Assembly (NCBI RefSeq): GCF_016734905.1
Contig: NZ_JAERPO010000001.1
Coordinates: forward strand, 1,116,001 to 1,180,000
Reading direction: 5' to 3'
From: Sphingopyxis jiangsuensis
Lineage (GTDB): Bacteria > Pseudomonadota > Alphaproteobacteria > Sphingomonadales > Sphingomonadaceae
DNA length: 64,000 nucleotides
Each line of letters opens with the position of its first letter. Position 1 is the stretch's first letter. Below are positions 23,851 to 42,259 of the stretch, piece by piece. The notes under the pieces are model-generated. The model was not told the DNA's origin, made no database searches, and was given only the letters and a program-made list of their open reading frames with translations. A program made the translations under genes and the position numbers.

Positions 23851-25329
23851 CTATTGGGCGACCAGACGATGCCAGTCGGCGAGGCGCGCGCGCCTGACGT
23901 CCTCCTTGATGACGGGATCGAAGCGGTCCGATTGGCCGCACATATCGGCGGCCTCGATCAATGAAGAGAAGCGCCCAATCCCTACCGCCGCGAGCATCGC
24001 TGCACCGCGAGCGGTCGTTTCGACGTCGTGGGGGCGTTCGACGCCGAGGCCGAGGATATCGGCAATATCCTGCGCAACCCAGTTATTGGCACTCATCCCG
24101 CCATCAAGCCGCAGCCGATTCCAGTGGCAGCCATCGCCTGCGTAGGCGGTTTTGAGATCGTCGAGTTGATGCGCGATCGATTCAAGCGCAGCGCGCGCGA
24201 TTTCCGCGCGTCCCGTGCCGTGCGTGAGGCCGGCGATGACGGCGCGCGCCTCGGCGCGCCAATAGGGAGCGCCCAGCCCCGACAACGCCGGAAGAATGGT
24301 CACGCCGCCGCTGCTTTCGACGGACCGTGCCAGCGCTTCGGTTTCGGACGCATCCTTGATAATGCTGAGCTTGTCGCGGAGCCACTGAACGAGGCTTCCC
24401 GCAACAAAGATCGATCCTTCGAGCGCGTAGGAGCGTTTACCCCCGACCTGCGCGAGCACGGTACCGAGCAGGCGATGGGCACTTCGGACCGGCCGATCGC
24501 CCGTATTGCTGAGAATGAAGGCTCCGGTGCCAAGCGTAGCCTTCGTCTGACCGTCAGCAAGGCATGCCTGCCCGATCATCGCGCCCTGCTGGTCCCCGAT
24601 GAGCCCGCAGACAGGAATCGGCGCACCGAAAATGTCGGCGCTTGTCGAACCAAGCTCGCCACAGGAATCGACAATTTCAGGTAATATGCTGCGCGGCACG
24701 CCGTGAAGCGCCAGCAGATCATCGTCCCACCGGCCGCTGTCGAGGTTCATCAGCATCGTGCGGCTTGCGTTGCTCGCGTCACTAATATGAAGGCCGCCCG
24801 TCAGATTCCAGACCAGCCAGCTTTCGACTGTGCCGACCGCTAGCCGGGAACCGAGCGCGCGTGCCTCCGGATTGTTTGCCAACACCCAGGCGATCTTTGT
24901 CGCCGAAAAATAGGGATCGAGTACGAGACCGCTCCTATCGGATACGAGCGCCTCATGCCCCTCGTCGCGAAGCGTCGCACACTGCACCGCGGTCCGGCGA
25001 TCCTGCCAGACAATCGCCCGGCCGACCGGCTCGCCACTCGTCCGGTCCCAGGCGACGATCGTCTCGCGCTGGTTGGCAATGCCGATCGCAGCGATGCGAT
25101 CAGCGCCGCCAGCCCCGGCTACCATTTCGCGCGCACATTCGATGGTGCGATCGCGAATCTCGGCAGCGTCGTGCTCGACCCATCCGGGCGCCGGATAATA
25201 TTGGGTAAGCTCGGCCTGCGACATGGCGCGACGCACCCCGCGGTCGTCATAAAGGATTGCGCGCGTCGACGTCGTTCCCTCGTCGAGCACCAGAAACAGC
25301 CGCTCGTCTTTCAGCCCGGAATCGATCAT
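23851..25329 (-). CDS. glpK: Glycerol kinase
   Basis: The 492-residue FGGY kinase shows DEGTTSTRAILYD (phosphate loop), GWVEHDAAEI, NQRETIVAWDRTSGEP, CGLIGDQQGAMIGQACL and LRLDGGMSANNWVAQDIADI, all hallmarks of GlpK. It phosphorylates glycerol to glycerol-3-phosphate in the cytosol. GGAAGGGCG precedes ATG 25329. It is the last gene of the minus-strand operon, 24 bp after the RibB-like gene. Paired with glpD four genes upstream it can process glycerol released from sulfoquinovosyl glycerol (inference from context). Confidence 0.95.
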   Translation of the reverse strand: MIDSGLKDERLFLVLDEGTTSTRAILYDDRGVRRAMSQAELTQYYPAPGWVEHDAAEIRDRTIECAREMVAGAGGADRIAAIGIANQRETIVAWDRTSGEPVGRAIVWQDRRTAVQCATLRDEGHEALVSDRSGLVLDPYFSATKIAWVLANNPEARALGSRLAVGTVESWLVWNLTGGLHISDASNASRTMLMNLDSGRWDDDLLALHGVPRSILPEIVDSCGELGSTSADIFGAPIPVCGLIGDQQGAMIGQACLADGQTKATLGTGAFILSNTGDRPVRSAHRLLGTVLAQVGGKRSYALEGSIFVAGSLVQWLRDKLSIIKDASETEALARSVESSGGVTILPALSGLGAPYWRAEARAVIAGLTHGTGRAEIARAALESIAHQLDDLKTAYAGDGCHWNRLRLDGGMSANNWVAQDIADILGLGVERPHDVETTARGAAMLAAVGIGRFSSLIEAADMCGQSDRFDPVIKEDVRRARLADWHRLVAQ

Positions 25330-25353: not shown

Positions 25354-25950
25354 CTAGCCAATGCGGTCGATCAGCGCGCCGATGTCGGCGACGGGAATCG
25401 CATGCCGGGCGATGAAATCGTCAAGATCGTCGATCCGTGCCATCTCGCCATCGTCGCGCATGATCGAACAGATCACAGCCATGTCGCCTGCACCCGCAAG
25501 GTTGCAAAGCTCGATCGACGCCTCAGCGGCGGCCGCGCGCTCGCGCACCCCTCCCGGCGCCCCGATCAGCGGAAAGACGTGTCCGGGCGACACGAGGTCG
25601 TCGCCCGTTGCCTCGGGCGCTGTCGCAACGCGGACCGTATGCGCGCGATCCGCCGCGGAAATCCCGGTTTCGACGCCATGGCGCGCCTCGATCGAACGGC
25701 CGAACGGCCGGCCCGACTGGCGCTCCGCACCGGGATTGAGAAGCCCGATGCCCAATCGAACCGCACGTTCGGGTCGCATCGTCAGACAGATGAGCCCACG
25801 CCCGTGACTGGCCATGAAGTTGATAGCATCTGCCGTAACATGCCGTGCGGCAACGGCGAAATCGATGTCGCCGCCGCGCAACCGATCGCCGGTGATGATG
25901 ATGATGCGTCCCTGCGCCAGCGCTTCGAGAGCGTGTTCGATGTCAGGCAT
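25354..25950 (-). CDS. RibB-like protein lacking the catalytic residues of DHBP synthase
   Basis: The 198-residue protein aligns along its length with 3,4-dihydroxy-2-butanone-4-phosphate synthase (VETGISAADR, SPGHVFPLIGAPGGV, NLAGAGDMAVIC). Yet the acidic loop is DRLRGGD instead of DRENEGD, which removes Glu38 and Glu40 (E. coli numbering). The metal-binding His153 motif GHTEA is AAAEA, and Glu174 (CEL) is serine (CSI). Arg37, Asp42 and Thr108 remain. Normal RibB activity is therefore unlikely. The ATG overlaps the stop of the FMN reductase by one base (TGATG). A flavin- or sugar-phosphate-binding accessory to the monooxygenase system is possible but unproven. Confidence 0.85.
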   Translation of the reverse strand: MPDIEHALEALAQGRIIIITGDRLRGGDIDFAVAARHVTADAINFMASHGRGLICLTMRPERAVRLGIGLLNPGAERQSGRPFGRSIEARHGVETGISAADRAHTVRVATAPEATGDDLVSPGHVFPLIGAPGGVRERAAAAEASIELCNLAGAGDMAVICSIMRDDGEMARIDDLDDFIARHAIPVADIGALIDRIG

Positions 25951-26525
25951 CAAGCTGCCTTTCGCGCGGCAGCAAAGCTGCTGGCGCCCGCGACAAGCTG
26001 GTCGGCGACGAGTTCGAGCTGAAGCCGAGCCCTGTCCTCAAGACATTCGCCGTCGGGCGAAAAGAGCCCTCGATAGGTGCGAACGGTCGCCCCCATCGGC
26101 GTCGGCCAGCCGCGCAGCGCGTGAACGATGCTGCGCAATGTTTGCATCGTGCTCATCGTCGCCTGGTCACCATAGGCCGTCGCGATAAGGCCGACCGCCC
26201 GTCCGTCGAGATAGGGACGCACATCGCCCGCCAGTTCCTCGAGATAGTCGAGGGCATTTTTCACCAGCCCCGAAATCGTACCGTGATAGCCGGGCGCTGC
26301 AATCAATATGCCGTCGGCGTTCCGTACAGCCTCGACAAGCTTTATGCCATCCTCAGGGCCGTGGAGCGGACCCCGATAATGCGGTAGTGCGCCCAAATAG
26401 CTGCCGCCGAACAGGTCGACGTGCGCGCCCTGCGCCGTCGCCCGCGCCGCAGCAACGCCAAGCGCCTGTTCGGTCGCGCTGATCGGCGACACCGTGCCGC
26501 CAATAGCGACAATGTTGATGCTCAC
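25950..26525 (-). CDS. NAD(P)H-dependent FMN reductase (SsuE/SmoA-like role)
   Basis: The start is set at GTG 26525, whose GTGA overlaps the glpD stop and which has AAAGGA at proper distance; an ATG two codons upstream is possible. The 191-residue flavodoxin-like protein has the FMN motif IAAPGYHGTISGLVKNALDY, IGGTVSPISATEQAL at the N-terminus and ATAYGDQATMSTMQTLRSIV. These enzymes deliver reduced FMN to two-component monooxygenases. With an SsuD-like monooxygenase two genes upstream, that is the natural role. Confidence 0.88.
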   Translation of the reverse strand: MSINIVAIGGTVSPISATEQALGVAAARATAQGAHVDLFGGSYLGALPHYRGPLHGPEDGIKLVEAVRNADGILIAAPGYHGTISGLVKNALDYLEELAGDVRPYLDGRAVGLIATAYGDQATMSTMQTLRSIVHALRGWPTPMGATVRTYRGLFSPDGECLEDRARLQLELVADQLVAGASSFAAARKAA

Positions 26526-28009
26526 GCACATTTCCTTTCGTCAAAGGCTTCCGCCAGCGCCTGCTGCGCCGCAGCGTCAAGGTGCAGGCCAAGCTTGGTC
26601 CGGCGCCAGAGAAGATCGTCGGCTGTCTTGCACCACTCCTGTTCGACGAGATAGCCAATCTCGCGATCGGTCAGTCCAAAGCCATAATGGCGCCCGCATT
26701 CGTCGAGCCGCGACGCTCCGGCAAGGATCCCAAAGGTTCGCGTGCCGTAGCTGCGCGCGAGACGCTCGGCCCAATGCGCCTCGAGAAAGGGAAAGGTCGC
26801 ACGCAGCGACCGCACGAGATCCGCGAAACCATCGATCGCGAAATCTCCGCCAGGAAGCGGCGCGTCGCCCGTCCAGCGGGTCCGCGTTATCGCGGGAACC
26901 CGCGGCGTAAGCAGGTCAAGCGCGTCTTCGGCAAGGCGGCGATAGGTCGTTATCTTGCCACCAAAGATGGTCAGCAGCGCCGGGCCGTCGCCTTCGGGAG
27001 AGAGGTCGAGATTGTAGCCGCGCGTCGCCGCCTCGGGACGGTCCGATCCATCGTCGACAAGAGGGCGCACCCCCGAATAGGTCCAGACCACATCGGCCGG
27101 GGATACGCTTTTCCTAAAAAAGCGGCTCGCGCCTTCGCACAGATAAGCGACCTCCTCGTCGGAGGCTCGGATATCCGAAAGATCGCCGTCATGGTCGCGG
27201 TCGGTCGTCCCGATCAGCGTAAAATCGCCTTCATAGGGGATGGCAAAAAAGATGCGCCCGTCGGGAAGCTGGAAAAAATAGCTATAGTCGTGAGCGAACA
27301 GCGCGGGGACGACGATATGCGATCCGCGTACGAGCCGCACGCGCTTGCCGACCGGCGCATCGCCGAGCCCCGACACGTCGACCGCCGCGGGCCCCGCTGC
27401 ATTGACGATGGCGCGCGCACGAAACTGGCCGGCGGGCGTATCGACAGTCCAGTGATCGCCCTGGCGCTCGAAACGCGTTACGCGGCATCCAGTACGAATT
27501 TCAGCGCCGCGGTCGGCGGCATCACGCGCATTGAGAAGAACGAGCCGAGCGTCATCGACCCAGCAATCCGAATAGACAAAACCTGCCGCAAACCCGTCCT
27601 GAAGCGCCCGCCCTGCGACATGCTTGCGCAGGTCGATGGTTGCGGTCGCGGGCAGCCGCGCTCGCCCGCCGATATGGTCGTAGAGGAACAGGCCCAGCCG
27701 GATCAGCCAGCGCGGACGCAGGCCCGCAACATGCGGCAGGACGAACCGCATCGGTCTCACAATATGCGGCGCGATCGCCCACAGGCGTTCGCGCTCGGAC
27801 AGCGCCTCGCGGACGAGACCAAACTCATAATGTTCGAGATAGCGCAGGCCGCCGTGGATGAGCTTTGTCGAGGCAGAGGACGTCCCGCTCGCAAGGTCAT
27901 TTGCTTCGAACAGCAGGACGCGCGCGCCGCGCCCCGCGGCATCGCGGGCGATACCGCAGCCGTTGATGCCACCGCCGATCACCGCAATGTCAAAGATGTC
28001 GGCGGACAT
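26522..28009 (-). CDS. glpD: Aerobic glycerol-3-phosphate dehydrogenase
   Basis: The 495-residue FAD protein starts with the dinucleotide motif IAVIGGGINGCGIARDAAGR, followed by GTSSASTKLIHGGLRYLEHY, the GlpD signature. LIGTTDRDHDGDL and the C-terminal cap domain are also present. It oxidises glycerol-3-phosphate to dihydroxyacetone phosphate, passing electrons to quinone at the inner membrane. It begins 12 bp after the monooxygenase stop and overlaps the FMN reductase. Its placement inside this operon, separated from glpK, implies that glycerol is a product of the pathway encoded here. Confidence 0.95.
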   Translation of the reverse strand: MSADIFDIAVIGGGINGCGIARDAAGRGARVLLFEANDLASGTSSASTKLIHGGLRYLEHYEFGLVREALSERERLWAIAPHIVRPMRFVLPHVAGLRPRWLIRLGLFLYDHIGGRARLPATATIDLRKHVAGRALQDGFAAGFVYSDCWVDDARLVLLNARDAADRGAEIRTGCRVTRFERQGDHWTVDTPAGQFRARAIVNAAGPAAVDVSGLGDAPVGKRVRLVRGSHIVVPALFAHDYSYFFQLPDGRIFFAIPYEGDFTLIGTTDRDHDGDLSDIRASDEEVAYLCEGASRFFRKSVSPADVVWTYSGVRPLVDDGSDRPEAATRGYNLDLSPEGDGPALLTIFGGKITTYRRLAEDALDLLTPRVPAITRTRWTGDAPLPGGDFAIDGFADLVRSLRATFPFLEAHWAERLARSYGTRTFGILAGASRLDECGRHYGFGLTDREIGYLVEQEWCKTADDLLWRRTKLGLHLDAAAQQALAEAFDERKCA

Positions 28010-28021
28010 TCGCGCGCTCCG

Positions 28022-29113
28022 TTACCGGAACTCGAGCGGCGCGTGCGCGATGTGCGGCAACACATGGCGTGCGAACAGGTCGGCTTCCTGCGCGTGCGGA
28101 TAGCCCGACAGGATGAACGCCTCGATCCCCTCGGCCTGATAGGCGCGAAGCTTGGCGAGCACCTGGTCGGGCGTACCAACGATAGCGGCTCCACAACCCG
28201 AGCGGGCGCGGCCAATGCCGGTCCACAGATTCTCCTCGACGAACCCGTCGCCGCCCGCCGCGCTACGCAGTTCCGCCTGTCGCTGGACCCCGTAATTCTT
28301 GGCGTCGAGCGACTTCTCGCGGATTGCGGCGCCCGTTGCCTCGTCGAGTTTTGAAAGCAGCCGGTCGGCGTAATGACGGGCCTCGTCCTCGGTTTCGCGC
28401 ACGATCACATGGACGCGATATCCGAACTTCAACGTGCGCCCGAAGCGCGCCGCGCGTTCGCGCATATCGGCGATCGTCTCGCGCACCTTGTCCATCGTGT
28501 CGGGCCACATGAGATAGACGTCGCAGCCCTCGGCAGCGCATTCGCGCGCCTCGTGGCTCAGCCCGCCGAAATAGAAGGGCGGGCACTTGCCCGAAAGCGT
28601 CGTGATGCGCGGCGGCTCGAGCTTCAGCTGATAAAATTCGCCGTCATGGTCGAGCGCCTCGCCATTGAGCAGCGTGCGCACGATTTTCATCACCTCGGTC
28701 GCGCGTGCATAGCGCGGCCCTCCAGCGAGCTGCTGGCCGGGCATGTCCGAGGAGATGATGTTGACGTTAAGCCTTCCGCCGGTGCCCGCCGCGTTGGGGC
28801 CTAGGATGCGGTCAAGCGTCGCAATACGGCGCGCAAGCTGCGGCGGCCAGTCTTCGCCGATGCGCGTCGCCCACAACAGCTTCATGCGCTGCACCTGCGT
28901 CGCAACGGCGGCCGCAAAGACCGTAGTGTCGAGCCCGAGCTGATAGCCCGAAGGCAGCAAGATATTGTCGAATCCGCCCTCTTCGGCGCGGAGCACGATA
29001 TTGCGGCAATGCTCCCAGCTTGAGCGCAGATAGGGGTCGGAGACGCCCAAAAATTCATAGTCGTCGTCGCACAGCGCCGAGAACCAGGCGATTTCGCATT
29101 GCTGCTGGGTCAT
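28022..29113 (-). CDS. SsuD/SmoC-like flavin-dependent sulfonate monooxygenase
   Basis: This 363-residue LLM-class (luciferase-fold) protein resembles alkanesulfonate monooxygenase: RLNVNIISSDMPGQQLAGG, PPFYFGGLSHEARECAAEG, RVHVIVRETEDEARHYADRL (the Arg-x-His sulfonate pair) and GIEAFILSGYPHAQEADLF. With FMNH2 and O2 the family cleaves the C-S bond and releases sulfite. In the sulfo-SMO route the SmoC member converts sulfoquinovose to 6-oxoglucose. The sulfoquinovosidase, aldo-keto reductase and FMN reductase in the same operon support that assignment over a general alkanesulfonate enzyme. GAGGAAAGAAT precedes the ATG. Confidence 0.88.
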   Translation of the reverse strand: MTQQQCEIAWFSALCDDDYEFLGVSDPYLRSSWEHCRNIVLRAEEGGFDNILLPSGYQLGLDTTVFAAAVATQVQRMKLLWATRIGEDWPPQLARRIATLDRILGPNAAGTGGRLNVNIISSDMPGQQLAGGPRYARATEVMKIVRTLLNGEALDHDGEFYQLKLEPPRITTLSGKCPPFYFGGLSHEARECAAEGCDVYLMWPDTMDKVRETIADMRERAARFGRTLKFGYRVHVIVRETEDEARHYADRLLSKLDEATGAAIREKSLDAKNYGVQRQAELRSAAGGDGFVEENLWTGIGRARSGCGAAIVGTPDQVLAKLRAYQAEGIEAFILSGYPHAQEADLFARHVLPHIAHAPLEFR

Positions 29114-29188: not shown

Positions 29189-30103
29189 TCAGGGCAGCGG
29201 GGCGCCGCGCGCTGCAACCAACACATTATACCATTCGGCGCGCGTCCAGCGGACGTTGAGCGCACTCGCCGCCTCGCGGATTCGCTCGGCGCGCTGCGAT
29301 CCGACGATCGGCACAATTCCCGCCGGATGAGCCATCAACCAGCTGTAAGCCGCGATTTCGCGCGACACATCCTGCGCTTCGGCGACGCCGTCCAATGCGG
29401 CGGCAACCGCTTTGTCGCGCTCGCTTTGCGGCGCTAGCAGTCGGCCGCCGCCGAGCGGCGACCATGCAAGTACTGCAATCCCGTGCGCCATCGCGTGATC
29501 GAGCTCGCCATTTTCGAAGCAATCGATACGAAGCGGGCTGATTTCGGGCTGCGTCGAAACCAGCTTGTTACCCAGGAATCGGTCAAGCGCGTCAGTCTGC
29601 GCAAGGGTGAAGTTGGAGACACCAAGCGTCCGGATCTTGCCGGCCGCGACCGCATCGTCGAGGACGCGCGCCACCTCTTGCGGGTGGGTCAGAATATCGG
29701 GGCGATGGACCTGCCAAAGATCGACGAAGTCAGTGCGCAGCCGCCGCAAGGATGCATCGATCGCTTCGACCAGATACTCGCCGCTCTGATCATAGGGGAG
29801 CGGCGGACGGATGCCGCCCTTCGTCGCCAGCACCATGCGATCGCGCAGCGCGGGCTCATTGGCGAGTACGTCGCCCAGCAGCGCCTCGGCATCGCCAAAA
29901 CCCTGCGCGCCGTCAAAGCCGTAAATGTCGGCCGTATCGAGAAAGTTGATCCCCGCGTCGAGCGCGGCGTGGACGAGACGCGCCGCTTCGGTTGCGGTGC
30001 GTTCGCCCTCGGCAAGCCGCCACATCCCCCACGCGATGGACGAAATCGAAATTCCGCTGTTTCCAAGCGGGCGGGAAACAGGGGGGGCAGACAAAAGGCT
30101 CAT
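29189..30103 (-). CDS. Aldo-keto reductase (SmoB-like, candidate 6-oxoglucose reductase)
   Basis: The 304-residue TIM-barrel protein has the AKR tetrad: Asp and Tyr in FLDTADIYGFDG, Lys in MVLATKGGIRPP and His in DLWQVHRPDI, plus SNFTLAQTDAL and a cofactor-binding IVPIVGSQRAERI. In the sulfo-SMO pathway an AKR (SmoB) reduces 6-oxoglucose to glucose with NADPH. Its ATG overlaps the LacI stop (ATGA). A GC hairpin GGCGCGG-CTGTC-CCGCGCC (29163-29181) lies in the 75-bp gap before the monooxygenase gene and might tune expression or mRNA stability. Confidence 0.88.
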   Translation of the reverse strand: MSLLSAPPVSRPLGNSGISISSIAWGMWRLAEGERTATEAARLVHAALDAGINFLDTADIYGFDGAQGFGDAEALLGDVLANEPALRDRMVLATKGGIRPPLPYDQSGEYLVEAIDASLRRLRTDFVDLWQVHRPDILTHPQEVARVLDDAVAAGKIRTLGVSNFTLAQTDALDRFLGNKLVSTQPEISPLRIDCFENGELDHAMAHGIAVLAWSPLGGGRLLAPQSERDKAVAAALDGVAEAQDVSREIAAYSWLMAHPAGIVPIVGSQRAERIREAASALNVRWTRAEWYNVLVAARGAPLP

Positions 30104-31113
30104 ATATTGGTCCTGTTTGGCGGAGCGACCGAAGCGCGCTCGACGAGGGTGTGGGGAAGACGGTGGTGACTGATATCGCCTCCCTCGATCAAAATACGGG
30201 TCGCGGTGCGGGCAAGCTCAGCCATCGGCTGGTGGATGGTGGTGAGCGGCGGCCAGACGGTTCGCGACAAGGTCGTGTCGTCGAAACCCGCCACCGAAAG
30301 CTCGGACGGGAGGTCGATTCCGCGATCGTGTGCGACTGCGAGCACACCCGCCGCCATATCGTCGTTTGCCGCGAAAATGGCTGTCGGAGGATTGTCGAGT
30401 CCGAGCAGGAAGCGTCCGGCAGCAACGCCACTGTCGAAATCGAACTCACCGTCGCAAACGAGCCCGGGCTCGAAAGCGATTCCGGCACGGTCGAGCGCGC
30501 GGCGATAACCATAGAGGCGATCATCGGACGCGCGGTGGCTCGGGTGCCCCTTGATGAATCCGATCCGCCGGTGGCCCGCGTTGATGAGGTGCGTCGTCAT
30601 ATCGTCGGCGGCCTGCGCGTCGTCCATGAAGACCGAGCTTGTCAGCGAATGGTTCGTTCCCGGCGAAATGCGCACGAACGGAATGTCCAGCGTCTCAAGC
30701 GCTGCGAGGACCGGCTCGCAATCGGTGACCGGCGAGGACAGGATGATTCCGTCGACGTGCGTTTCGGTCACGAGTCCGCGCACCTGGTCACCGACGCACG
30801 GGTCGGCGACATCGACGGGCTGGGCGAGCAGGCGGATCCCTCGCTCCTTGCAAAGCTGCCAGCAGCCTGTCTGGATCTGGAACATGTAGTAGGGGCTGTG
30901 ATTGTCATAGATCAGCGCGATCTGGTTCGACTTCGCGCCTGAAAGGATACGGGCAGCGACGCTCGGGCGAAAATCGAGTTCCGCCATCGCGGTCTCGACC
31001 CGGCGCCGCGTTTCGTCGCTCACATAGGGATGACCATTAAGCACGCGGCTCACCGTCTTTACCGCCACACCCGCCTTTGCGGCCACGTCCCGAATGTTCG
31101 ACCGCTCGCTCAT
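30100..31113 (-). CDS. LacI-family repressor of the sulfoquinovose operon
   Basis: ATG 31113 gives 337 residues, the family norm. The N-terminal helix-turn-helix is textbook (SNIRDVAAKAGVAVKTVSRV, LNGHPYVSDET), followed by a periplasmic-binding-like sugar domain (GIILSSPVTDCEPVLAAL, RRIGFIKGHPSHRASDDRLY, GFDDTTLS). The start overlaps the sulfoquinovosidase stop (ATGA) and the stop overlaps the AKR start, so the regulator is embedded in the operon it probably controls. The shared 19-bp sites at 33182 and 37411 are its likely operators. Confidence 0.92.
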   Translation of the reverse strand: MSERSNIRDVAAKAGVAVKTVSRVLNGHPYVSDETRRRVETAMAELDFRPSVAARILSGAKSNQIALIYDNHSPYYMFQIQTGCWQLCKERGIRLLAQPVDVADPCVGDQVRGLVTETHVDGIILSSPVTDCEPVLAALETLDIPFVRISPGTNHSLTSSVFMDDAQAADDMTTHLINAGHRRIGFIKGHPSHRASDDRLYGYRRALDRAGIAFEPGLVCDGEFDFDSGVAAGRFLLGLDNPPTAIFAANDDMAAGVLAVAHDRGIDLPSELSVAGFDDTTLSRTVWPPLTTIHQPMAELARTATRILIEGGDISHHRLPHTLVERASVAPPNRTNI

Positions 31114-33120
31114 CGATTCAATACCTCCGCCATCTCGCCGAACAGCGGTGCAAACGCGCTGTCCGGCCGGTAAAATACCGGTGGCATGCCGACAGGCGCA
31201 GGGATATCGTGGATGCCGCCGGCGAAATCCTCGCCGGTCCAGCAGTGGCGCCACGGCCCTTCGCCCGGAAGGATGACGTGCCGCGCCTCGACCCCCTGCT
31301 CGATGACCGGCGCCACCAAGAGGTCTGCACCGTAAAGATATTGATCCTGCACCGTAAAGAGGCCGCGATTATCAGGGTAATGGAGAAAGAGTGGCCGCTG
31401 TGCAGGCAGCCCTTTATCTTGCGCTTCGTGGGACAGATGCCGGACATAAGGCGCAAGATGCGCATGGACGCGGCTCCATCGTGCGAAGCAGGCCAGCAGT
31501 TCGGGCGTCGAATCATATTGCAGATTGTCGTCGGGCCGGTTGCCCTCGTGGCTGCGCATGACCGGGGCGAACGCAGCCAGTTCGCACCAGCGCTGCATCA
31601 GTTCCTCGGTGCGGACATTGCCATGCAGCGAGGTATAGCCGCCGCAGTCCGAATGGCTGTACGCATTGCCGACGAGCCCTGCCGACAGCGCTCCTGTAAT
31701 CACCGTTCCGATGCCGTCGTGGCGGGTGAAATCGACACATTGATCGCCCGCCCAGAGCAAAGGGCAGTGCGCTTGCACGCCGGAAAAACCGGCGCGCATG
31801 AATGAAGAGCGCATCGCCCGTCTTGCCGCGCGAGGCGAGCGCCTGTGCATTCACCTCGGCCCACAGCACCGGCCAGCGGTTGTGCGCCTCCATCGGGTCC
31901 GATCCGTCGGCGAGCCGCACGTCGGTCGGCAGATATTCGCCAAAATCGGCCATCCATCCGTCAATGCCGATGTCGAGCATCTCGCGACCGAGAATATGTT
32001 CGGCAAACCAGTCGCGCGTTTCGGGGCGGGTGAAATCGACGACCCCGCAGTCGAACTCGCCAAAGTCGACAAGATAAACCTCGTCACTGTCCTGGCGCAG
32101 GCAGAAATGCCCCTCGGCCTTCGCCTGCTCATAAAGCGTGCCGTCGACCGCCAGATAGGGGTTTGCATATGCGAGGAAACGAATGCCGCGGGCGTTCAAC
32201 GCTGCGATGCGCGCGCGCAGATAGGGGTAACGCTGTTCGCTGCGCGCTCCGCCAGTCCAGTCCCAAAAGAGACGGCGGCCAAAGCTCGTCTCGCGAATGC
32301 CCGCCCAGTCTTCGCACCAAAGCCCCGATATAGCGGCCCCGGCATCGACGAAGCGCTCAAGGCGATCGAAGCTCGATGTCCCGGACTTGAGGCCGACGAT
32401 CGCGCCGCCGATCGCCCAGTCGGGCAGCGCTGGCTGGCGGCCGAAGCGCGCCGACAATTGCCCGACGATCTCTCTCGGACCTTCAGCGGCAAAAAACTCG
32501 AACCGCGCCTGCGCACCCCAATAATCGACGCAGTGCGCCGCCGGATCGGAAAAATCGAGGACGCTATACCCGAAATTGTCCAGATGGACCGCCAGCCACC
32601 GCGACGTCAAAAAGGTCGGCTGGGGATAGTTGCTGTTCCAATAGTCGCCACCAGCCATGCCGTCGGCGTCCATGATGCGCGTGATCTCGGTCGATTTGTC
32701 GCGACCGACTCCCGGCTCGCTCGTCCAGATCGGAAAACGTCGTCCGGCAAGCATCAGATAGCTCATTTGCTCGCCGCCGCCCCAAACGGCCTCGTCAGGC
32801 TCGGCGTGGAAGCGGGTCGTTATCCGGTCATAGCCGCCGCGCAGAGCGTCAACGACCAGCGCGTCGCCGTCGAGACGCAGCCGCACCGCGGGCTCGCCCG
32901 CATCGAGCAACAGCATGTCGGCGCCATCGGCACGCCATTCCGTCGGCGCAATGCGCCCGCTTGGCGCATCGTCGATGCGGAAATTGCCGCGATACATCGC
33001 GACCTGCGGGTCGCCCTTCGCAATGACCACCGATGGACATTGAACGGCATGGCGCAGCACGACATGCGCTCCGAATCGAAGCTCAAAACCGCCTTTACTG
33101 TCGGAAAATCGCAAATTCAC
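31110..33120 (-). pseudogene. GH31 sulfoquinovosidase with a single-base frameshift
   Basis: The GTG at 33120 (GAGAGGG upstream) opens a GH31 enzyme closely resembling E. coli YihQ (DWAGIRETSFGRRLFWDW, GWMADFGEYLPTD). Sulfonate-binding residues are Lys245, Glu270, Arg283 and Trp286, the KERW variant known from sulfoquinovosidases, and the nucleophile is Asp392. After codon 439 one extra base at 31803 shifts the frame. Removing it restores FMRAGFSGVQAHCPLLWAGD with acid/base Asp459, through to the stop at 31110 (~670 residues). The family cleaves sulfoquinovosyl glycerol or SQDG to sulfoquinovose. The shift may be a real mutation or a sequencing error. The start extension up to 33903 is spurious. 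Confidence 0.88.
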
Positions 33121-33181: not shown

Positions 33182-33200
33182 TATGACACCGCTTGACATA
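33182..33200. promoter_or_regulatory. LacI-type operator candidate, sulfoquinovosidase/TonB receptor side
   Basis: TATGACACCGCTTGACATA is an imperfect palindrome (TATGnCA-n5-TGnCATA) between the divergent sulfoquinovosidase and TonB receptor genes. TTGACA inside it could serve as the receptor's -35 element. A nearly identical 19-mer occurs at 37411. Confidence 0.7.
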
Positions 33201-33307
33201 TTCGGAGGACAGGCGCATTGCCATGCAGGAAGCGAGAGGCGTTTTTCGTGCAGCCGGGCTTCCGGCGGCAGAAAAACGCCCCGAATCGATATTGGGAGGA
33301 GAATGCT

Positions 33308-35620
33308 ATGAGTGCGTCCAATTTTACCCTTTTGCGCGCCGCGGCCGCCACGGCCAGCATGATCGCAGTCGCTTCGGCCACCGCAGCGCACGCGCAGGAA
33401 GTCGAAGATATCATCGTCACCGCGCAGAAGGTCGAGGAAAATGTGCAGAAGGTCCCGATCGCGATCACCGCGGTTTCGGGCGACCGCCTCGAGGCGACAG
33501 GCACGACGAGTCTCGAAGGCATTACGCGCATTGTTCCCTCGGTGACGTTCCGCAAGGGCACGACCAGCGCGAACAGTGCAATCGTGATGCGCGGCGTCGG
33601 AACCATCACCTTCTCCGTCGCGGCGGAGCCGAGCGTGTCGACCGTCGTCGACGGCATCGTTCTCAGCCGTTCGGGCCAGGCCTTCATGGACCTCGTCGAT
33701 GCCGAGCGCCTCGAGGTCCTGCGCGGCCCGCAGGGAACGCTGTTCGGCAAGAATGCGTCGGCCGGCCTCGTCAACATCGTGTCGAAGGGCGGCACGGACG
33801 AACTCGAAGCCGAGGCGAAGGCCGAATGGTTCGAGGGCGACGAATATCGCCTCCGCGGTTCGGTTTCGGGCCCGATCGGCGGCGACTGGAGTGGTCGCAT
33901 CACCGGCTTTTACGGCAGCTATGACGGCAACATCACCAACATCAATGGCGGTCGCAACCGCAAGGTGAATGGCTATGAACATTGGGGCACGCGCGGAATC
34001 GTCGACTATCGCGGCGACGTGGCGCGGCTGCGCTTCATTGCCGATTATTTCGAGGCCGATGACGATTGCTGCGCCGATGTAACGGGTGCGAGCCGCGGCG
34101 CGGTGCTCGATGCAGAACTCGGCCTCCCGGGCGGCGTTGCGCTCGGCGAGAAGCAGCGCTTCATCAATCACAATCTTGTTACCCGCACGCGCGACAAGCA
34201 ATGGAGCCTGACCGCCAGCGGCGATTTCGATCTCACCGACACACACACGCTGAGCGTCGTCGCGGGCTATCGCAACTGGGAGAATGAAGAGATCCGCGAA
34301 GGCGACTTCCTGCCCCGCGCGATCGTCGGCACGGCCGAATTGCACGACAACGGCCTCGTGAAGACGCAGCAGTTCTCGGTCGAGGCGCGCATCGCGTCCG
34401 ACCAGTCCATGCCCTTCTTTTACCAGGTCGGGGCTTTTGCCTGGCATTCGGACAACAAGCAGGACTTCACGCGCCGCGACATTACCTGCACCACATCGAC
34501 GCTTCCCGTCGATCCGGTAACGGGTGCGCGCCCGTGCAACGTCAACGACACGGTCAACACGCTGTTCCCGACCGCAACGTCGAACAGCGATGTCAATTCG
34601 ACCAACTTCGCGCTGTTCGGTCAGGCGACCTATCGCTTCAACGACCTCTTCGCGTTGACCGGCGGGCTCCGCTACACCTGGGACGACCTCAGCTTCACGC
34701 ACTTCCGCGCGCCGGGCATCAATGCGGTGACCGGCCTCCCGGCGACCGGCCCGGGAATTTCGGGCAGCCCGGCGGGCGGTACGATCGCTTCGGGCGGAAC
34801 AGGCCTCAACACGTCGAGCGGGTCGAGCAGCAACGGCAACCTTTCGGGCAAGGCCGTGCTGCAATTCACCCCGTCGGACGACATCATGCTCTATGGCAGC
34901 TATACGCGCGGCTATAAGGGTCCGGCCTTCAACGTCTTCTTCAACCATACGGCGCCGACCAACGCGGTTCCGATCGATGAAGAAACGTCGGACGCCTTTG
35001 AAATCGGTCTGAAATCGCGATTCCTCGATAACAAGGTCCAGCTCAACCTCGCGGGCTTCAGCGTCGAGTATGACGGCTTTCAGGCGAACAACTTCGTGCT
35101 GCTGAACGGTGCCGTGGTCACCAACCTGACCAACGCCGGCACCGTGAAGAGCGAGGGCTTCGAGGCGGACCTGACCGCGGTTCCCGTCGAAGGGCTGACG
35201 CTGCGCGGTAGCGCCGCCTATGCCGACGCAAAGGTGAAGAAGTTCAATCCGAACCCGCTCACCAATGCCCCCGATGCCCGCGACGGCACGCGCCTGCCGC
35301 TCGCCCCGAAGTTCACCTACACCGTGGGCGCGGACTATGAGGTGCCGGTAGGCGGCATGATGCTCTACCTCGGCACCGACTATCGCCATGTGTCGAAGCA
35401 ATTCTCCGACCTTGGCGAACAGGGCCTCATCGACGCTTATGGCCAGTGGAACGCATCAATCGGCATCTCGGACGCCGAGGACCGCTATCGCCTGACCTTC
35501 CACGCACGCAACATCAGCGACGAAAGCTATGTGCTGCTGAACGTCTCGAACGGCCAGCGCCTCCAGATCCCGCGCGATGCCGACCGTTACTTCGGCGTGA
35601 GCCTCCGCGCGCGCATGTAA
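33308..35620 (+). CDS. TonB-dependent outer-membrane receptor (candidate sulfoquinovoside uptake)
   Basis: GGAGGAG precedes ATG 33308. The 770-residue protein has a signal peptide ending ATAAHA, a TonB box (EDIIVTAQKVEENVQKVPIA), a plug domain (ITRIVPSVTFRKG, LEVLRGPQGTLFGKNASAGL) and a beta barrel ending in LRARM (final aromatic/basic strand). This subfamily imports glycosides and small carbohydrates across the outer membrane with TonB/ExbBD energy. It is divergent from the sulfoquinovosidase with a shared operator, so sulfoquinovosyl glycerol or a related glycoside is the probable substrate. Confidence 0.92.
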   Translation: MSASNFTLLRAAAATASMIAVASATAAHAQEVEDIIVTAQKVEENVQKVPIAITAVSGDRLEATGTTSLEGITRIVPSVTFRKGTTSANSAIVMRGVGTITFSVAAEPSVSTVVDGIVLSRSGQAFMDLVDAERLEVLRGPQGTLFGKNASAGLVNIVSKGGTDELEAEAKAEWFEGDEYRLRGSVSGPIGGDWSGRITGFYGSYDGNITNINGGRNRKVNGYEHWGTRGIVDYRGDVARLRFIADYFEADDDCCADVTGASRGAVLDAELGLPGGVALGEKQRFINHNLVTRTRDKQWSLTASGDFDLTDTHTLSVVAGYRNWENEEIREGDFLPRAIVGTAELHDNGLVKTQQFSVEARIASDQSMPFFYQVGAFAWHSDNKQDFTRRDITCTTSTLPVDPVTGARPCNVNDTVNTLFPTATSNSDVNSTNFALFGQATYRFNDLFALTGGLRYTWDDLSFTHFRAPGINAVTGLPATGPGISGSPAGGTIASGGTGLNTSSGSSSNGNLSGKAVLQFTPSDDIMLYGSYTRGYKGPAFNVFFNHTAPTNAVPIDEETSDAFEIGLKSRFLDNKVQLNLAGFSVEYDGFQANNFVLLNGAVVTNLTNAGTVKSEGFEADLTAVPVEGLTLRGSAAYADAKVKKFNPNPLTNAPDARDGTRLPLAPKFTYTVGADYEVPVGGMMLYLGTDYRHVSKQFSDLGEQGLIDAYGQWNASIGISDAEDRYRLTFHARNISDESYVLLNVSNGQRLQIPRDADRYFGVSLRARM

Positions 35621-35675
35621 TCGGAATGGGCGCCCGCGGGTCGGGCCGCTCGTTCCCCACGAGGATCATCCCCTG

Positions 35676-35700
35676 CCCCCCTGCGCCCAGCGCAGGGGGG
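35676..35700 (+). terminator. Strong hairpin downstream of the TonB receptor gene
   Basis: CCCCCCTGCGC-CCA-GCGCAGGGGGG is a perfect eleven-base-pair stem with a three-base loop, 56 bp beyond the receptor stop. Only CTATT follows, so it is a terminator-like or mRNA-stabilising stem without a proper U-tract. Confidence 0.6.
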
Positions 35701-36101
35701 CTATTCATGTCCTTCACACGGCCGCCGACCGCCTGCGCCGCGCAATCGGGCAGGGCTGACGACCGCGATCGGCCGCCCGCGACAGAATATCGGCCGACAA
35801 GTCCACCAGCGATCAATAACGCTCTGCCTGCGGCGCCGACCTCTTCGTGCCGGCCCGCTTATCGACATGCGCCAAGCTACGAGGATAGGCGGCATCCAGT
35901 GGATCGGCGTATTGGAACGGCGAGCTGGCGCCGATGTGCGGTGCCTTGGCCGCGCACCATCTGAGATGCTCCCCCGCACCCTTCGCGCGACGCCCGGTCA
36001 AAGCCGGGCGCAATGAACCTGCAAATTTGGGGACTTTCGGATCCCGGCCTTCGCCGGGAATCACCGACAATCCTGATTGAAGGCGCGCCGAACGCCGCGC
36101 C
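35701..36101. other. Gene-free stretch between receptor and MFS gene
   Basis: No gene is supported. The right part contains short inverted sequences such as GCCCGGTCAAAGCCGGGC (near 35992) and GGCCTTCGCCGGGAATCACC, resembling the dispersed extragenic repeats of sphingomonads. Confidence 0.45.
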
Positions 36102-37340
36102 TCATTCCTTCGTGTCAGCGAGCTCTAGGCGCGGCACGACCAGATGGACCAGCCCAAGCGCGCACAGATAGGCGACGCTGCAAATTGCGAAGAGCGGCCC
36201 ATAGCCCAGCCCGTTTCCGAGCGACCAGCCCGCGAATTCGATGATCGCCGTGCCCGACAGATTGCCTGCCACGGCGCCAAGCGCAATGACGGTTGCGACG
36301 CGCAGCGGCGGGATAATGTCGGCGGTCATGCCAAAGATATTGGTCGAGAAACCCTGATGCGCGAACAGGCCGATGCCAACGCACACGGCCGCGACCCAAG
36401 GATTGGCCGTGTACATGGCGAGCGGCATTGCCAAAACCGCGAGCGCAAAGATGAACATCGACAATTTGCGCGCACGATTGACCGAATAGCCGCGCGCAAG
36501 CAGGATCGGATAGAGGGCGCCCGACGTCACGGCACCGAGCGCTGCCAATGTAAAGACGATGGCGATCGGCAGACCGAGTGCGCTTTGGCTCATCCCGAAA
36601 ACCCGGTTGAAGAAATCGGGCATCCAGAAGAGCACAAACCACCACACGCAGTCGGTGCAGAATTTGGCGCCGACGACCGCCCACGTCCGGCGGTCGCGCA
36701 GCAGCGGTCGCCAAGCGACTTTCGCTCGCTCGGGAAGGTCGCCGAGCGGGCGCATCTTGCGCATTGCGGGTATCCAGAAGGCAAGCCACACAAAGCCTAG
36801 CGCACCGGTTACGATGAAGGCCGCTTTCCAGCCAAAGGCCATCGCCAGCGGCGGGATAAGGAGCGGCGTGATGATCGCACCGATATTGGGGGCGGTGTTG
36901 ATCAGCCCGATCGCCATATTGCGCTGCCGCACCGGCAAATAGGTGGCAGCCGTCTTGATTCCAGCCGGCGTGCTGACCGACTCGCCGACCGCGAGGACGA
37001 CGCGCGCTGCGACGAATTGCTGAACGGACTGCGCCAGGGCGTGCGCCATCCCTGCAAGGCTCCAGACCGCTATGGCGATTGCATAGGCCCAGCGTACGCC
37101 AAGACGGTCGACGAACCAGCCTACACCCAAGAGAGCGACGGCAGCCGCGATCTGGAAGGTCGATCCCAGATGTGCATAATCCGAATCGCTCCATCCGAAC
37201 TCGGCTTCAAGCGTCGGCTTGAGGAGCGCAAGCACCTGCCGGTCGACATAGTTGAGCGCGTTGCCCAGAAAAAGCAGCGTAACCAGCATGATCGCGATGC
37301 GCGTCGAGCGGTCCTGCTGCGCTGCTGCGGTCGCCATCAT
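36102..37340 (-). CDS. MFS transporter, ACS/hexuronate type (candidate sulfoquinovose importer)
   Basis: The 412-residue protein has twelve hydrophobic helices and the anion:cation symporter signature (NALNYVDRQVLALLKPTLEA, GWFVDRLGVRWAYAI, VVLAVGESVSTPAGIKTAAT). This subfamily moves hexuronates and other acidic sugars with protons, so the anionic sugar sulfoquinovose is a reasonable substrate. GGAGAGAAG precedes tandem ATGs. It is divergent from the YeiH-like gene, and their common promoter region carries the same 19-bp site as the sulfoquinovosidase promoter. Confidence 0.9.
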   Translation of the reverse strand: MMATAAAQQDRSTRIAIMLVTLLFLGNALNYVDRQVLALLKPTLEAEFGWSDSDYAHLGSTFQIAAAVALLGVGWFVDRLGVRWAYAIAIAVWSLAGMAHALAQSVQQFVAARVVLAVGESVSTPAGIKTAATYLPVRQRNMAIGLINTAPNIGAIITPLLIPPLAMAFGWKAAFIVTGALGFVWLAFWIPAMRKMRPLGDLPERAKVAWRPLLRDRRTWAVVGAKFCTDCVWWFVLFWMPDFFNRVFGMSQSALGLPIAIVFTLAALGAVTSGALYPILLARGYSVNRARKLSMFIFALAVLAMPLAMYTANPWVAAVCVGIGLFAHQGFSTNIFGMTADIIPPLRVATVIALGAVAGNLSGTAIIEFAGWSLGNGLGYGPLFAICSVAYLCALGLVHLVVPRLELADTKE

Positions 37341-37410
37341 CTTCTCTCCCTCGCCCTTGAAGCTGTTTCGACTTGCAACCTAGCGCACGCCGCCGATAAG
37401 GGAAGAAAAA

Positions 37411-37429
37411 TATGACACCGTAGGACATA
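37411..37429. promoter_or_regulatory. LacI-type operator candidate, MFS/YeiH side
   Basis: TATGACACCGTAGGACATA matches the 33182 site at 16 of 19 positions, including both outer half-sites. It lies between the divergent MFS and YeiH-like genes, 21 bp before the latter's start. The placement suggests joint control of uptake and sulfite export. Confidence 0.7.
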
Positions 37430-37449: not shown

Positions 37450-38532
37450 ATGGGCCGCGCCCCCTCTCCCACCGAGCCCTATTCCGGCGACCTGTTCGGC
37501 GAGATCCACCTTGCCGAATTGACCCGAAGCGCGGCAGCGCCGACGGTCCGCGACTATTTTCCGGGCCTGACGATCTGTGCGGTAGCCTCGGGCGCTGCGG
37601 CCTGGCTATCGGACCACTATGGCGTGCCCGTCATCCTGCTCGGACTTCTTGTCGGTCTCGCGCTCAATTTCGCGGCGCGCGACCCACGGACGCATCGGGG
37701 ACTCGATCTGGCATCGCAGCAATTTCTGCGGATCGGTATCGTTTTGCTGGGTTTCCAGGTCAGCGCATCGCAGATCATGGCACTGGGAATCGGACCCTTC
37801 GCGGCCCTGTTGGCGATTATGGCGATCGCCTTGGCGGCCGCCCTGATCGCCGCCCGCCTGTCGCGCCAATCACCATTTGCGGGCCTCCTCGCGGGCGGCG
37901 CGACTGCGATCTGCGGCGCGAGCGCCGCGCTGGCGCTCTACAGCGTCATCGGGAAGGAACGGCTCGGGCAGGCGCAATTTGCACTGACGCTCGTTGGCGT
38001 GTCGATGGCGAGCGCGCTCGCCATGTCGCTCTATCCTGTCATTGCCGCACAGCTGGGACTCTCCGACGCGCAGGCCGGTTACCTGATCGGCGCGTCGATC
38101 CATGATGTCGGCCAGGCGATCGGCGGCGCTTATGATTTTTCCGATACAGCGGGCGCCTACGCCACGATCGTGAAGCTCGCGCGCGTCACCATGCTCGCCC
38201 CAGTGGTACTGCTGGTATCGCTCTGGATAGGCCCCGCCGCCAGCAACGCCGCGCGACCCGCCTGGCGCCGGCTTGCCGTCCCGTGGTTTATCACGCTCTT
38301 CCTCGCTATCGTCGCGGTCAACAGCCTGATCGACCTGCCTGCAATGACAGCAACGACGTCGCTCGCCGCGTCGAAGGCCATGCTTCTGCTCGCCGTCACC
38401 GCAACGGCCATGCGTTCGCGAACCGACTTGCTGCTCGATCTTGGCTGGCGCGCGACGGCTCCGGTGGCGGCAGCGTCACTCGCCAGCTTTGCTGCCGCTC
38501 TCTTCTTCGTTATGTTCGGTGTGTCCGGTTAG
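37450..38532 (+). CDS. YeiH-family putative sulfur-anion exporter
   Basis: This 360-residue membrane protein has about ten helices and the family motifs GVPVILLGLLVGLALNF, LLAGGATAICGASAALALYS (the GATAICGASA loop) and GASIHDVGQAIGGAYDFSD. The family (YeiH, 'putative sulfate exporter') is linked to sulfonate catabolism gene clusters, where it is thought to expel sulfite. With a sulfite-releasing monooxygenase in the same probable regulon, sulfite export is the best guess. GAAGGA precedes the start. Confidence 0.87.
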   Translation: MGRAPSPTEPYSGDLFGEIHLAELTRSAAAPTVRDYFPGLTICAVASGAAAWLSDHYGVPVILLGLLVGLALNFAARDPRTHRGLDLASQQFLRIGIVLLGFQVSASQIMALGIGPFAALLAIMAIALAAALIAARLSRQSPFAGLLAGGATAICGASAALALYSVIGKERLGQAQFALTLVGVSMASALAMSLYPVIAAQLGLSDAQAGYLIGASIHDVGQAIGGAYDFSDTAGAYATIVKLARVTMLAPVVLLVSLWIGPAASNAARPAWRRLAVPWFITLFLAIVAVNSLIDLPAMTATTSLAASKAMLLLAVTATAMRSRTDLLLDLGWRATAPVAAASLASFAAALFFVMFGVSG

Positions 38533-40453: not shown

Positions 40454-42259
40454 TCAGCTGCTCGCAAGGACCATCCGCTCGGCTTCGATCAAGACAGGAT
40501 ATTCGGGCGGCACATCGGCACGCTGCAAGGTCTCGAGACATGCACGGGCTTGACGCGTAGCCGCGTCCGGCTTCGCAAGGCGCGCCGCGGCGCAGAGGCT
40601 GCGTGCATGCCAAGGATGGGCGGACCCAAAACTTGATCGCAGCGCGGTCTGGGACCGCCGCAACTCGGTTGCCGCAGCCTCTTTATGATCGATTTTGGTG
40701 AGGATTTCGGCCCACCGCAGGCGGAACCAGCCTTCCTTTCCCGGACGCCCATAGAGCAGACGCTCGGCATTTTTCTGGGCCTCGATCACCAGTTTTGCGG
40801 CGGCGTCGATGTCGCCCAGTTCGGCCTCGACATCGGCCAGTTCGGTCATCGTATAGAGCGTCCAGAAATGGTCGCTGCCGAGTTTTTCGCGAAATATGGC
40901 CAACATGGATACGAAAATGTCACGGGCCTTGTGCCGGTCGCCGCGCGCCGCATGCACCAGCGCCACGCTATATTTGGGCGATTGCGATTCCAGATGGTCG
41001 GAGCCGAGCCGGGCATCGAAGATTGTCTGTGCCTTTTCGAGCGCCTTCAGCCCATCGTCATACCGACCGGCATCGACCAGCAGGTCGCCATAATCCGAAT
41101 AGGCCCAGCCCGTGAGCGGGTGATCCGCCCCATATTGTTCCTCGCGCATCGCGATATGCGCGCGCAGCGCTTCGTCAGCCGCGGGGAAGCGCGCAAGCTT
41201 GCGCTCGGACAAGCCGAGGAACCAATAGGCGTCGGCAAGCAAATTGGGATCCAGGTCTGCGGGCACCGCAATCGTCTGCCGCAAGGTTGCGCGCGCGGCG
41301 GCATAGTCGCCAATCTCGAACGCCATTTTTGCGCGATTGACGCGGGCACGGGGCAAGGATGCCCTGTCTCGCACCTCGGCCCCCGACAGCGCGCGCAAGC
41401 ATACGCGCTCCCCTCGCTTGGTCAGTCCCGCGAGCCGCAGTTGCTGGCAGAGATCGGTATCGATTTTTACGAAGACCGGATCGGAAGCGGGAAGATATCG
41501 TTCGGCATAATCCCGTGCCGCATCAAGATGCCGAACCGCCCGGCCATATTCGCCCCAGCCGCTCACGGCGTTCGCGACCATCTGATGAAGTGACACCAGC
41601 GATGCGGGATGGTCGGCGAAGCGCGTGTCCATCGAGAGGGCAATCCGCTCGACGACATTGCGCAATTTCGGGTCGCGCTCGTTGAGCGAATAGGGGTCGG
41701 TCGCCGCGATCAGATCGTTCGACACATAGGCGACGAGGGCTTCCGCCTCGGCGCTTCGCCCGGCGTTTGTCTTCGGCGCCCAGAGGCCGCTGAGGAGCAG
41801 TGCCGCTATGAGCAGGATCGCGCCGCTCAAGACCGCCATGCCGCGCCGCGACCTGGCCGCACTCACGAAACGATCGACTATCCGCCTCGGCGCCATGACG
41901 GTCGAGCGGGTGGGCACAGCCGCGGGGGCGCTGTCTACGCCCTGCCAAACGGCCTCGCCGACCAGTGTATAGCCCCTGCCAAAGACCGTTTCGAGCCGGT
42001 CCTTGTCTTTGCCCAACGCATGACGCAACCGCCCGATCGCCTTCGCGAGCGAATTTTCATGAACAATGCGTCCGGTCCAGCCGGCTTCGAGCAATTCGTC
42101 CTTGGAAACCTCTTCGCCGCAGCGTTCAAGCAAAAGCGCGAAGATCGCGCAGGAACTGCGATCGAGCAGAATATCTTCGTCGGCCGAACGGACAAGACGC
42201 ACATCGGGAATGAAGCGGATCGAGTGAAAACTGCAGCAACGCTGTTCGGCTTGGAACAA
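40454..42259 (-). CDS. CadC-like membrane transcription regulator with TPR-like repeats
   Basis: I start it at TTG 42259 (GGGGGT upstream); the frame extends further but lacks family likeness. The N-terminal OmpR-type winged helix (DRSSCAIFALLLERCGEEVS, NSLAKAIGRLRHALGKDKDR, FGRGYTLVG) is followed by one transmembrane helix (GMAVLSGAILLIAALLLSGL). A long periplasmic region has TPR-like helical pairs (residues ~250-560). This is the layout of CadC-type one-component regulators that sense periplasmic signals. Genes for small exported proteins flank it on both sides and are its best candidate targets. Confidence 0.85.
   Translation of the reverse strand: MFQAEQRCCSFHSIRFIPDVRLVRSADEDILLDRSSCAIFALLLERCGEEVSKDELLEAGWTGRIVHENSLAKAIGRLRHALGKDKDRLETVFGRGYTLVGEAVWQGVDSAPAAVPTRSTVMAPRRIVDRFVSAARSRRGMAVLSGAILLIAALLLSGLWAPKTNAGRSAEAEALVAYVSNDLIAATDPYSLNERDPKLRNVVERIALSMDTRFADHPASLVSLHQMVANAVSGWGEYGRAVRHLDAARDYAERYLPASDPVFVKIDTDLCQQLRLAGLTKRGERVCLRALSGAEVRDRASLPRARVNRAKMAFEIGDYAAARATLRQTIAVPADLDPNLLADAYWFLGLSERKLARFPAADEALRAHIAMREEQYGADHPLTGWAYSDYGDLLVDAGRYDDGLKALEKAQTIFDARLGSDHLESQSPKYSVALVHAARGDRHKARDIFVSMLAIFREKLGSDHFWTLYTMTELADVEAELGDIDAAAKLVIEAQKNAERLLYGRPGKEGWFRLRWAEILTKIDHKEAAATELRRSQTALRSSFGSAHPWHARSLCAAARLAKPDAATRQARACLETLQRADVPPEYPVLIEAERMVLASS

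What the first reader, a model, noticed from the sequence alone, without database searches (positions are those of the whole stretch)
33182..37429. Two near-identical 19-bp sites join two divergent promoters into one regulon
TATGACACCGCTTGACATA (33182-33200) and TATGACACCGTAGGACATA (37411-37429) match at 16 of 19 positions, are both imperfect palindromes, and each sits in a divergent promoter (sulfoquinovosidase/TonB receptor; MFS/YeiH). I saw no third copy. Inference: they are operators of the LacI repressor at 30100-31113, making uptake, hydrolysis, desulfonation and sulfite export one switch.
Basis: partly seen in the sequence, partly recalled or inferred. Interest (0 to 1): 0.82.

Follow-up and report, generated by a model that had tools for sequence, protein, structure and literature searches.

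The report
Two LacI operators of sulfosugar regulon
Two matching 19-base DNA switches in a sphingomonad bacterium almost certainly bind one sugar-sensing repressor that controls the uptake and breakdown of the plant sulfosugar sulfoquinovose, and the same pair of switches is kept in dozens of related bacteria even where the genes have moved apart.

Summary
The two 19-bp sites are the only copies in the 3.13-Mb genome. The site recurs between the sulfoquinovosidase and TonB-receptor genes of 85 distinct related clusters, and at least 56 also have a second copy, usually by YeiH. Across 200 whole genomes the motif occurs in 20, never more than twice, and all 20 encode an ortholog (70% identity or more) of the adjacent LacI; 0 of 176 genomes without it have the motif. 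In two genomes the YeiH operon has moved away (314 kb in one), yet keeps the site. Clusters with a more distant LacI carry instead an 18-bp even palindrome with similar arms, and recognition-helix and hinge residues change with it. This covariation names LacI as the binder. Site 1 also contains a fixed TTGACA, read as the -35 box of the receptor promoter, absent from all second sites. I infer repression by blocking overlapping divergent promoters, relieved by a sulfoquinovose-derived ligand; binding and ligand are untested. Caveat: the sulfoquinovosidase frame is broken in this assembly (intact in 87 of 87 relatives). This is an ordinary local LacI regulon with a rare odd-length operator, undescribed in the papers searched.

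The parts
33182..33200 (+). Operator 1 (SQase/TonB type), TATGACACCGCTTGACATA
   Evidence: Exact location; conserved in 85 distinct relatives with mean information 1.82 bits per base against 0.37 in flanks
37411..37429 (+). Operator 2 (YeiH type), TATGACACCGTAGGACATA, 20 bp upstream of the YeiH start
   Evidence: Exact location; in 58 second-type sites TGTC and CGxTGTCA are invariant, with G at x in 57
30100..31113 (-). LacI-family regulator, 337 aa, too short for a lac-type tetramerisation tail; proposed repressor
   Evidence: Pfam LacI and Peripla_BP_3; present in 69 of 69 full-length site-positive loci
33193..33221 (+). Predicted TonB-receptor promoter: -35 TTGACA (33193-33198, inside operator 1), 17-bp spacer, -10 CATTGC (33216-33221)
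   Evidence: TTGACA in 86 of 88 first-type sites and 0 of 62 others; A at -10 position 2 in 100%. Inference; the generic sigma-70 scan found no match
33195..33223 (-). Predicted SQase-operon promoter: -35 TGGCAA (33223-33218; TTGAnT in relatives), 17-bp spacer, -10 TATGTC (33200-33195, inside operator 1)
   Evidence: Conserved block at fixed distance from the site. Inference
31110..33120 (-). GH31 sulfoquinovosidase (YihQ-like), reading frame shifted near 31,800 in this assembly
   Evidence: PDB 5ohs yihQ E=1.4e-152; two frames here, 87 of 87 relatives in one frame
33308..35620 (+). TonB-dependent outer-membrane receptor
   Evidence: Pfam Plug and TonB_dep_Rec_b-barrel
36102..37340 (-). MFS transporter (nearest to galactonate-type carriers)
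   Evidence: Pfam MFS_1; TIGR00893 below cutoff
37450..38532 (+). YeiH-family transporter (putative sulfite/sulfate exporter)
   Evidence: Pfam PF03601; TIGR00698 below cutoff
29189..30103 (-). Aldo-keto reductase (SmoB-like), ATGA overlap with LacI
   Evidence: Pfam Aldo_ket_red; best PDB 7bbz
28022..29113 (-). FMNH2-dependent sulfonate monooxygenase (SmoC/SsuD-like)
   Evidence: Pfam Bac_luciferase; PDB 7olf E=1e-108
26522..28009 (-). Glycerol-3-phosphate dehydrogenase GlpD
   Evidence: NF009906 above cutoff
25950..26531 (-). NADPH-dependent FMN reductase (SmoA-like)
   Evidence: Pfam FMN_red
25354..25953 (-). RibB-like DHBP synthase (riboflavin pathway)
   Evidence: PF00926 E=1e-59
23851..25329 (-). 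Glycerol kinase GlpK
   Evidence: NF000756 above cutoff

Best explanation
The two sites are the operators of the LacI-family protein at 30100-31113, a dedicated two-site local repressor of sulfoquinovose breakdown by the oxidative (sulfo-SMO/ASMO) route. Shown by sequence: both sites, their uniqueness, their conservation, their strict co-occurrence with this LacI clade, and covariation of operator length with LacI DNA-contact residues. Inferred: without the ligand a LacI dimer sits on each site. At site 1 it covers the -10 and start of the SQase-lacI-AKR-smoC-glpD-FMN reductase-ribB-glpK operon and the -35 of the TonB-receptor gene, whose promoters overlap on opposite strands, so one dimer closes both. 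At site 2 it lies just downstream of the probable YeiH start and upstream of the MFS promoter. A sulfoquinovose-derived ligand releases it. LacI lies in its own operon, so it limits itself.
For: Only two sites in the genome. Site conserved in place in 85 distinct clusters; 149 of 150 strong hits in 2.2 Mb lie at cluster gene starts. LacI ortholog and site co-occur in 81 of 83 distinct loci against 3 of 24 without the ortholog, Fisher 5e-17; the two misses, L039 and L107, lack the intergenic region because their contig stretch ends. In 200 whole genomes: 20 with the motif, all with LacI of 70% identity or more; the 4 other LacI-positive genomes carry one-base variants. YeiH operon unlinked in G193 (314 kb) and G138 (another contig) keeps the site. 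Seven of eight loci with a 48-66% LacI carry an 18-bp even palindrome instead; no locus with the closer ortholog has one; residues 18, 28, 52 and 56 switch with it. Of the window's own regulator genes LacI alone is conserved, in 69 of 69 full loci; the HTH/TPR gene at 40454-42355 is in none.
Against: No binding or expression data. Two loci (L054, L065) have a good site before the AKR gene but only a 52% LacI elsewhere in the genome, and L150 has one before a 48% LacI, so the boundary between clades is not perfectly clean. 29 distinct site-positive loci show only site 1, partly because of truncation and threshold. The generic promoter scan finds no sigma-70 match, so the promoter assignment rests on conservation alone. 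LacI-family proteins can also activate.
Confidence: 0.88

Rival explanations
1. Another regulator, encoded elsewhere, binds the sites, and LacI is only a neighbour.
For: Three loci have a site-like sequence without the close LacI ortholog (L054, L065, L150).
Against: Presence or absence of the motif follows LacI in 200 whole genomes, even among the 51 genomes with the monooxygenase (p=1.4e-10). Operator length follows LacI recognition and hinge residues. No other regulator gene of the window region is conserved in the related loci.
Confidence: 0.05
2. LacI acts as an activator, or represses one gene and activates the other, rather than as a simple repressor.
For: At the MFS gene the site would lie upstream of the proposed -35, a position compatible with activation.
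Against: Site 1 contains the proposed -10 of one promoter and the -35 of the other, and site 2 sits 20 bp before the YeiH start codon; these are blocking positions. LacI-family local sugar regulators mostly repress (established knowledge).
Confidence: 0.1
3. The two operators work as a pair by DNA looping (4.2 kb apart), as in the lac operon.
For: Two near-identical sites in one cluster.
Against: Distance between the sites varies, and the second site is 314 kb away in G193 and on another contig in G138. The 337-aa protein is too short for the lac-type tetramer tail (known LacI has 360 aa; knowledge).
Confidence: 0.04
4. The similarity is chance or a mobile repeat.
For: None found.
Against: No match in shuffles, no third copy, and conservation across Sphingomonadales genera with flanks diverged.
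Confidence: 0.005

Closest known systems
Local LacI-family sugar regulons (Ravcheev et al. 2014, PMC4052901)
   Same: LacI protein encoded in the operon it controls, palindromic sites mostly 30-140 bp before the genes, few targets, sugar catabolism
   Different: Operator is a 19-bp odd, asymmetric site; that survey found 1251 of 1303 regulators with even palindromes and only 4% with 17, 19 or 21 nt. No sulfosugar regulon turned up in the text searched
E. coli lac operator O1 / LacI
   Same: Odd pseudo-palindrome overlapping the transcription start, arms of unequal quality (from memory)
   Different: No sign of looping or tetramer tail; different arms; controls two separate promoter regions
CsqR (YihW), regulator of the E. 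coli sulfoquinovose genes (PMC10991401)
   Same: Local regulator of sulfoquinovose degradation
   Different: CsqR is a DeoR-family protein (knowledge) of the sulfo-EMP route; here a LacI-family protein and the oxidative desulfonation route
Sulfo-ASMO/SMO clusters of Novosphingobium aromaticivorans and Agrobacterium tumefaciens (reviewed in PMC12890257, PMC9594981)
   Same: SQase, flavin reductase, monooxygenase and aldo-keto reductase together
   Different: The two reviews name no LacI regulator or operator for them; the primary papers could not be read

Membership tests
LacI-family transcription factor and operator | LacI helix-turn-helix plus periplasmic-binding-protein-like domain | tested here: met
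   PF00356 and PF13377 above cutoffs
LacI-family transcription factor and operator | Palindromic operator with central CG before regulated genes | tested here: met
   CG at positions 10-11 invariant in all 88 first-type and 58 second-type sites, but odd length 19 instead of the usual even
LacI-family transcription factor and operator | Direct binding released by a sugar ligand | not testable with these tools
   Needs gel shift or footprint
Sulfo-SMO (ASMO) sulfoquinovose pathway | SmoB and SmoC homologs within ten genes (rule used in PMC13372026) | tested here: met
   AKR 29189-30103 and monooxygenase 28022-29113 are adjacent; PDB matches 7bbz and 7olf
Sulfo-SMO (ASMO) sulfoquinovose pathway | Functional sulfoquinovosidase YihQ | tested here: inconclusive
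   YihQ-like GH31 but frame shifted near 31,800 in this assembly; intact in 87 of 87 relatives
Sulfo-SMO (ASMO) sulfoquinovose pathway | Growth on sulfoquinovose with sulfite release | not testable with these tools
   Needs culture
Bidirectional (overlapping divergent) promoter | Divergent promoter elements shared on the two strands of one short stretch | tested here: inconclusive
   Conserved -35/-10 blocks with 17-bp spacers on both strands; start sites not mapped, and the -10 itself is not the shared element as in PMC12825309

The most novel reading that the evidence does not exclude
The repressor clade changed operator geometry: an ancestral 18-bp even palindrome gained one central base and became a fixed 19-bp asymmetric operator, with matching changes at recognition-helix residue 18, residue 28 and hinge-region residues 52 and 56, while one arm of the new operator doubles as the -35 of one promoter and the -10 of the opposite promoter. 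This gives a natural series for how a LacI-family protein switches operator spacing.
Probability: 0.5. Interest if true: 0.62.

Novelty: new member of a known kind. Interest (0 to 1): 0.5.

Why it matters
Sulfoquinovose is made in gigaton amounts and its oxidative desulfonation is a main route in freshwater sphingomonads, yet I found no described regulator for that route. The site gives a simple genome marker for the regulon and ties a TonB receptor, an MFS carrier and a YeiH exporter, all of unproven substrate, to sulfosugar use. The related 18-bp and 19-bp operators in sister LacI clades offer a testable case of evolving operator spacing.

Tried and rejected
Looping between the sites: rejected by unlinked copies. 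The HTH/TPR gene at 40454-42355 as binder: not conserved in any site-positive locus. Direct-repeat reading (TGACA 10 bp apart, OmpR/PhoB-like): set aside because the sister clade shows clear inverted palindromes and the sites follow LacI. LacI orthologs outside the family: none at E<=1e-110 among the sampled class genomes. The primary papers on the sulfo-SMO pathway were not held, so an earlier remark there on the regulator cannot be excluded. My first SQase query was translated in a wrong frame and was corrected.

Full report
Observation. The near-complete genome has only these two, and hits with three mismatches are at the level of the reversed-pattern control. Site 1 lies between a GH31 gene (GTG 33118-33120, minus) and a TonB-receptor gene (ATG 33308); site 2 lies between an MFS gene and a YeiH gene and ends 20 bp before the YeiH start codon.

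Setting. The minus-strand run SQase, LacI, aldo-keto reductase, FMNH2-dependent sulfonate monooxygenase, GlpD, FMN reductase, RibB-like protein and GlpK is tightly packed, with ATGA overlaps at SQase/LacI and LacI/AKR. The set matches the sulfo-SMO/ASMO route of sulfoquinovose breakdown. GlpK and GlpD would use the glycerol set free from sulfoquinovosyl glycerol (inference). LacI is inside the operon, so it is autoregulated if site 1 is its operator.

Conservation. A scan of named genomes with the monooxygenase gave 80 loci, and 36 stretches from unnamed family genomes were added. In relatives the site 1 consensus, read towards SQase, is TATGTCAAGCGGTGTCATA; the second site is TATGTCNNNCGGTGTCATA. 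After removal of two duplicate genomes there are 85 first-type sites and 59 others, and at least 56 loci have both. A weight matrix trained on first-type sites finds 150 strong hits in 2.2 Mb plus the window, of which all but one lie at cluster gene starts; the exception (L062) lies near a stretch end. Information per base is 1.82 bits in site 1 against 0.37 in its flanks, and 1.64 against 0.24 for site 2. Named genera include Novosphingobium, Erythrobacter, Porphyrobacter, Tsuneonella, Blastomonas, Sphingomonas, Parerythrobacter and Chakrabartia.

Who binds. In distinct loci of 12 kb or more, 81 of 83 with a close LacI have the site and 3 of 24 without it do; L039 and L107, the two misses, end before the intergenic region. 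In 200 whole genomes of the family the pattern TNTGTCNNNCGGTGTCANA occurs in 20, one or two copies each and none in the control. All 20 have a LacI of 70% identity or more, as do only four others (Fisher 6.6e-24), and those four (G061, G105, G129, G159) carry a one-base variant. Among the 51 monooxygenase-positive genomes alone the association has p=1.4e-10. Related genomes are not independent, so these p values overstate the case. The natural experiment is stronger. In G193 the MFS-YeiH-GlpD block lies about 314 kb from the SQase-LacI block, and in G138 on another contig, and both keep the site between MFS and YeiH. Linkage therefore does not explain the site; action in trans does.

Covariation. 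Eight loci carry a more distant LacI (48-66% identity) and lack the 19-bp site near SQase. Seven of them have an 18-bp even palindrome of the form TATGACA-NCGN-TGTCATA (up to two mismatches) at the start of the AKR, LacI, MFS or YeiH genes; no locus with the close LacI has one at one mismatch, nor near these genes at two, and no locus without LacI has one. The 19-bp clade is a single branch in a quick tree. Within the DNA-binding domain, besides residue 2 at the variable N terminus, four positions have no letter in common between the two groups: 18 (V against I/F), 28 (H against E/Q), 52 (V/I/M against L/Q/Y) and 56 (I against A/S/T). Position 18 corresponds by my alignment to Tyr17 in the lac repressor recognition helix, and 52 and 56 lie in the hinge region whose Leu57 corresponds to Leu56 there (knowledge). 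A survey of LacI regulators reports odd palindromes for only 4%, so the 19-bp form is the unusual one and looks derived.

Promoters. Anchored on site 1 without gaps, TTGACA is present in 86 of 88 first-type sites and in 0 of 62 others (p=2e-40, phylogeny not corrected). Seventeen bases downstream, towards TonB, lies a block with C in 98%, A in 100% and C in 86% at hexamer positions 1, 2 and 6. The opposite strand of the same stretch reads TTGAnT, 17 bases, TATGTC towards SQase. I read these as two overlapping divergent promoters. In the window they are TTGACA 33193-33198 with CATTGC 33216-33221, and TGGCAA 33223-33218 with TATGTC 33200-33195. These are inferences: a generic sigma-70 scan finds nothing, and the extra fixed bases could instead raise affinity. 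At site 2 a weaker conserved TTGCA and a TAAGG-like block precede the site, which would place the operator just after the YeiH start.

Mechanism. A LacI dimer on site 1 would cover the -10 and start of the catabolic operon and the -35 of the receptor gene at once; on site 2 it would stand in the path of YeiH transcription. Release by a sulfoquinovose-derived ligand is the expected trigger, but nothing here identifies the ligand. Only the DNA facts and the LacI association are shown.

Caveat on hydrolysis. The SQase gene in this genome is in two frames that change near 31,800; 87 of 87 relatives have one frame. It is either a lesion in this strain or an assembly error.

Verdict. It is a local LacI regulon, a known kind; its interest lies in the missing regulator for this pathway, the rare odd operator, and the 18-to-19-bp difference between sister clades.

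Noticed in passing
window 31110-33120 (near 31,800): The sulfoquinovosidase reading frame is shifted in this assembly, while 87 of 87 related loci have it in one frame.
   Followed up: partly
window 25354-25953: A RibB-like riboflavin-synthesis gene (PF00926) is embedded in the desulfonation operon, with a homolog (median 70% identity) in 23 of 69 related loci; it may feed flavin to the FMNH2-dependent monooxygenase.
   Followed up: partly
L054:8956-8974 and L065:8331-8349: A good 19-bp site (TATGTCTCACGTTGTCATA) precedes the AKR gene in two Novosphingobium clusters that lack the close LacI ortholog; the best LacI in those genomes is 52% identical and of the other recognition type.
   Followed up: partly
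L115:8665, L118:8360, L148:11457, L150:8391, L084:1643, L143:12493, L113:8318: 18-bp even palindromes at the AKR or LacI genes of clusters with a more distant LacI: probable operators of the sister regulators.
   Followed up: yes
L192 (G007), sites at G007:C1:21581 and 2830524: The cluster appears twice near the two ends of a single contig in G007, with interrupted matches; likely an assembly overlap.
   Followed up: no
L114, L119, L120, L151, L153: Monooxygenase clusters with a gap of about 1.3-1.6 kb between TonB and AKR and no GH31 SQase or LacI match nearby; the gap may hold another type of sulfoquinovosidase, and these clusters must have some other control.
   Followed up: no
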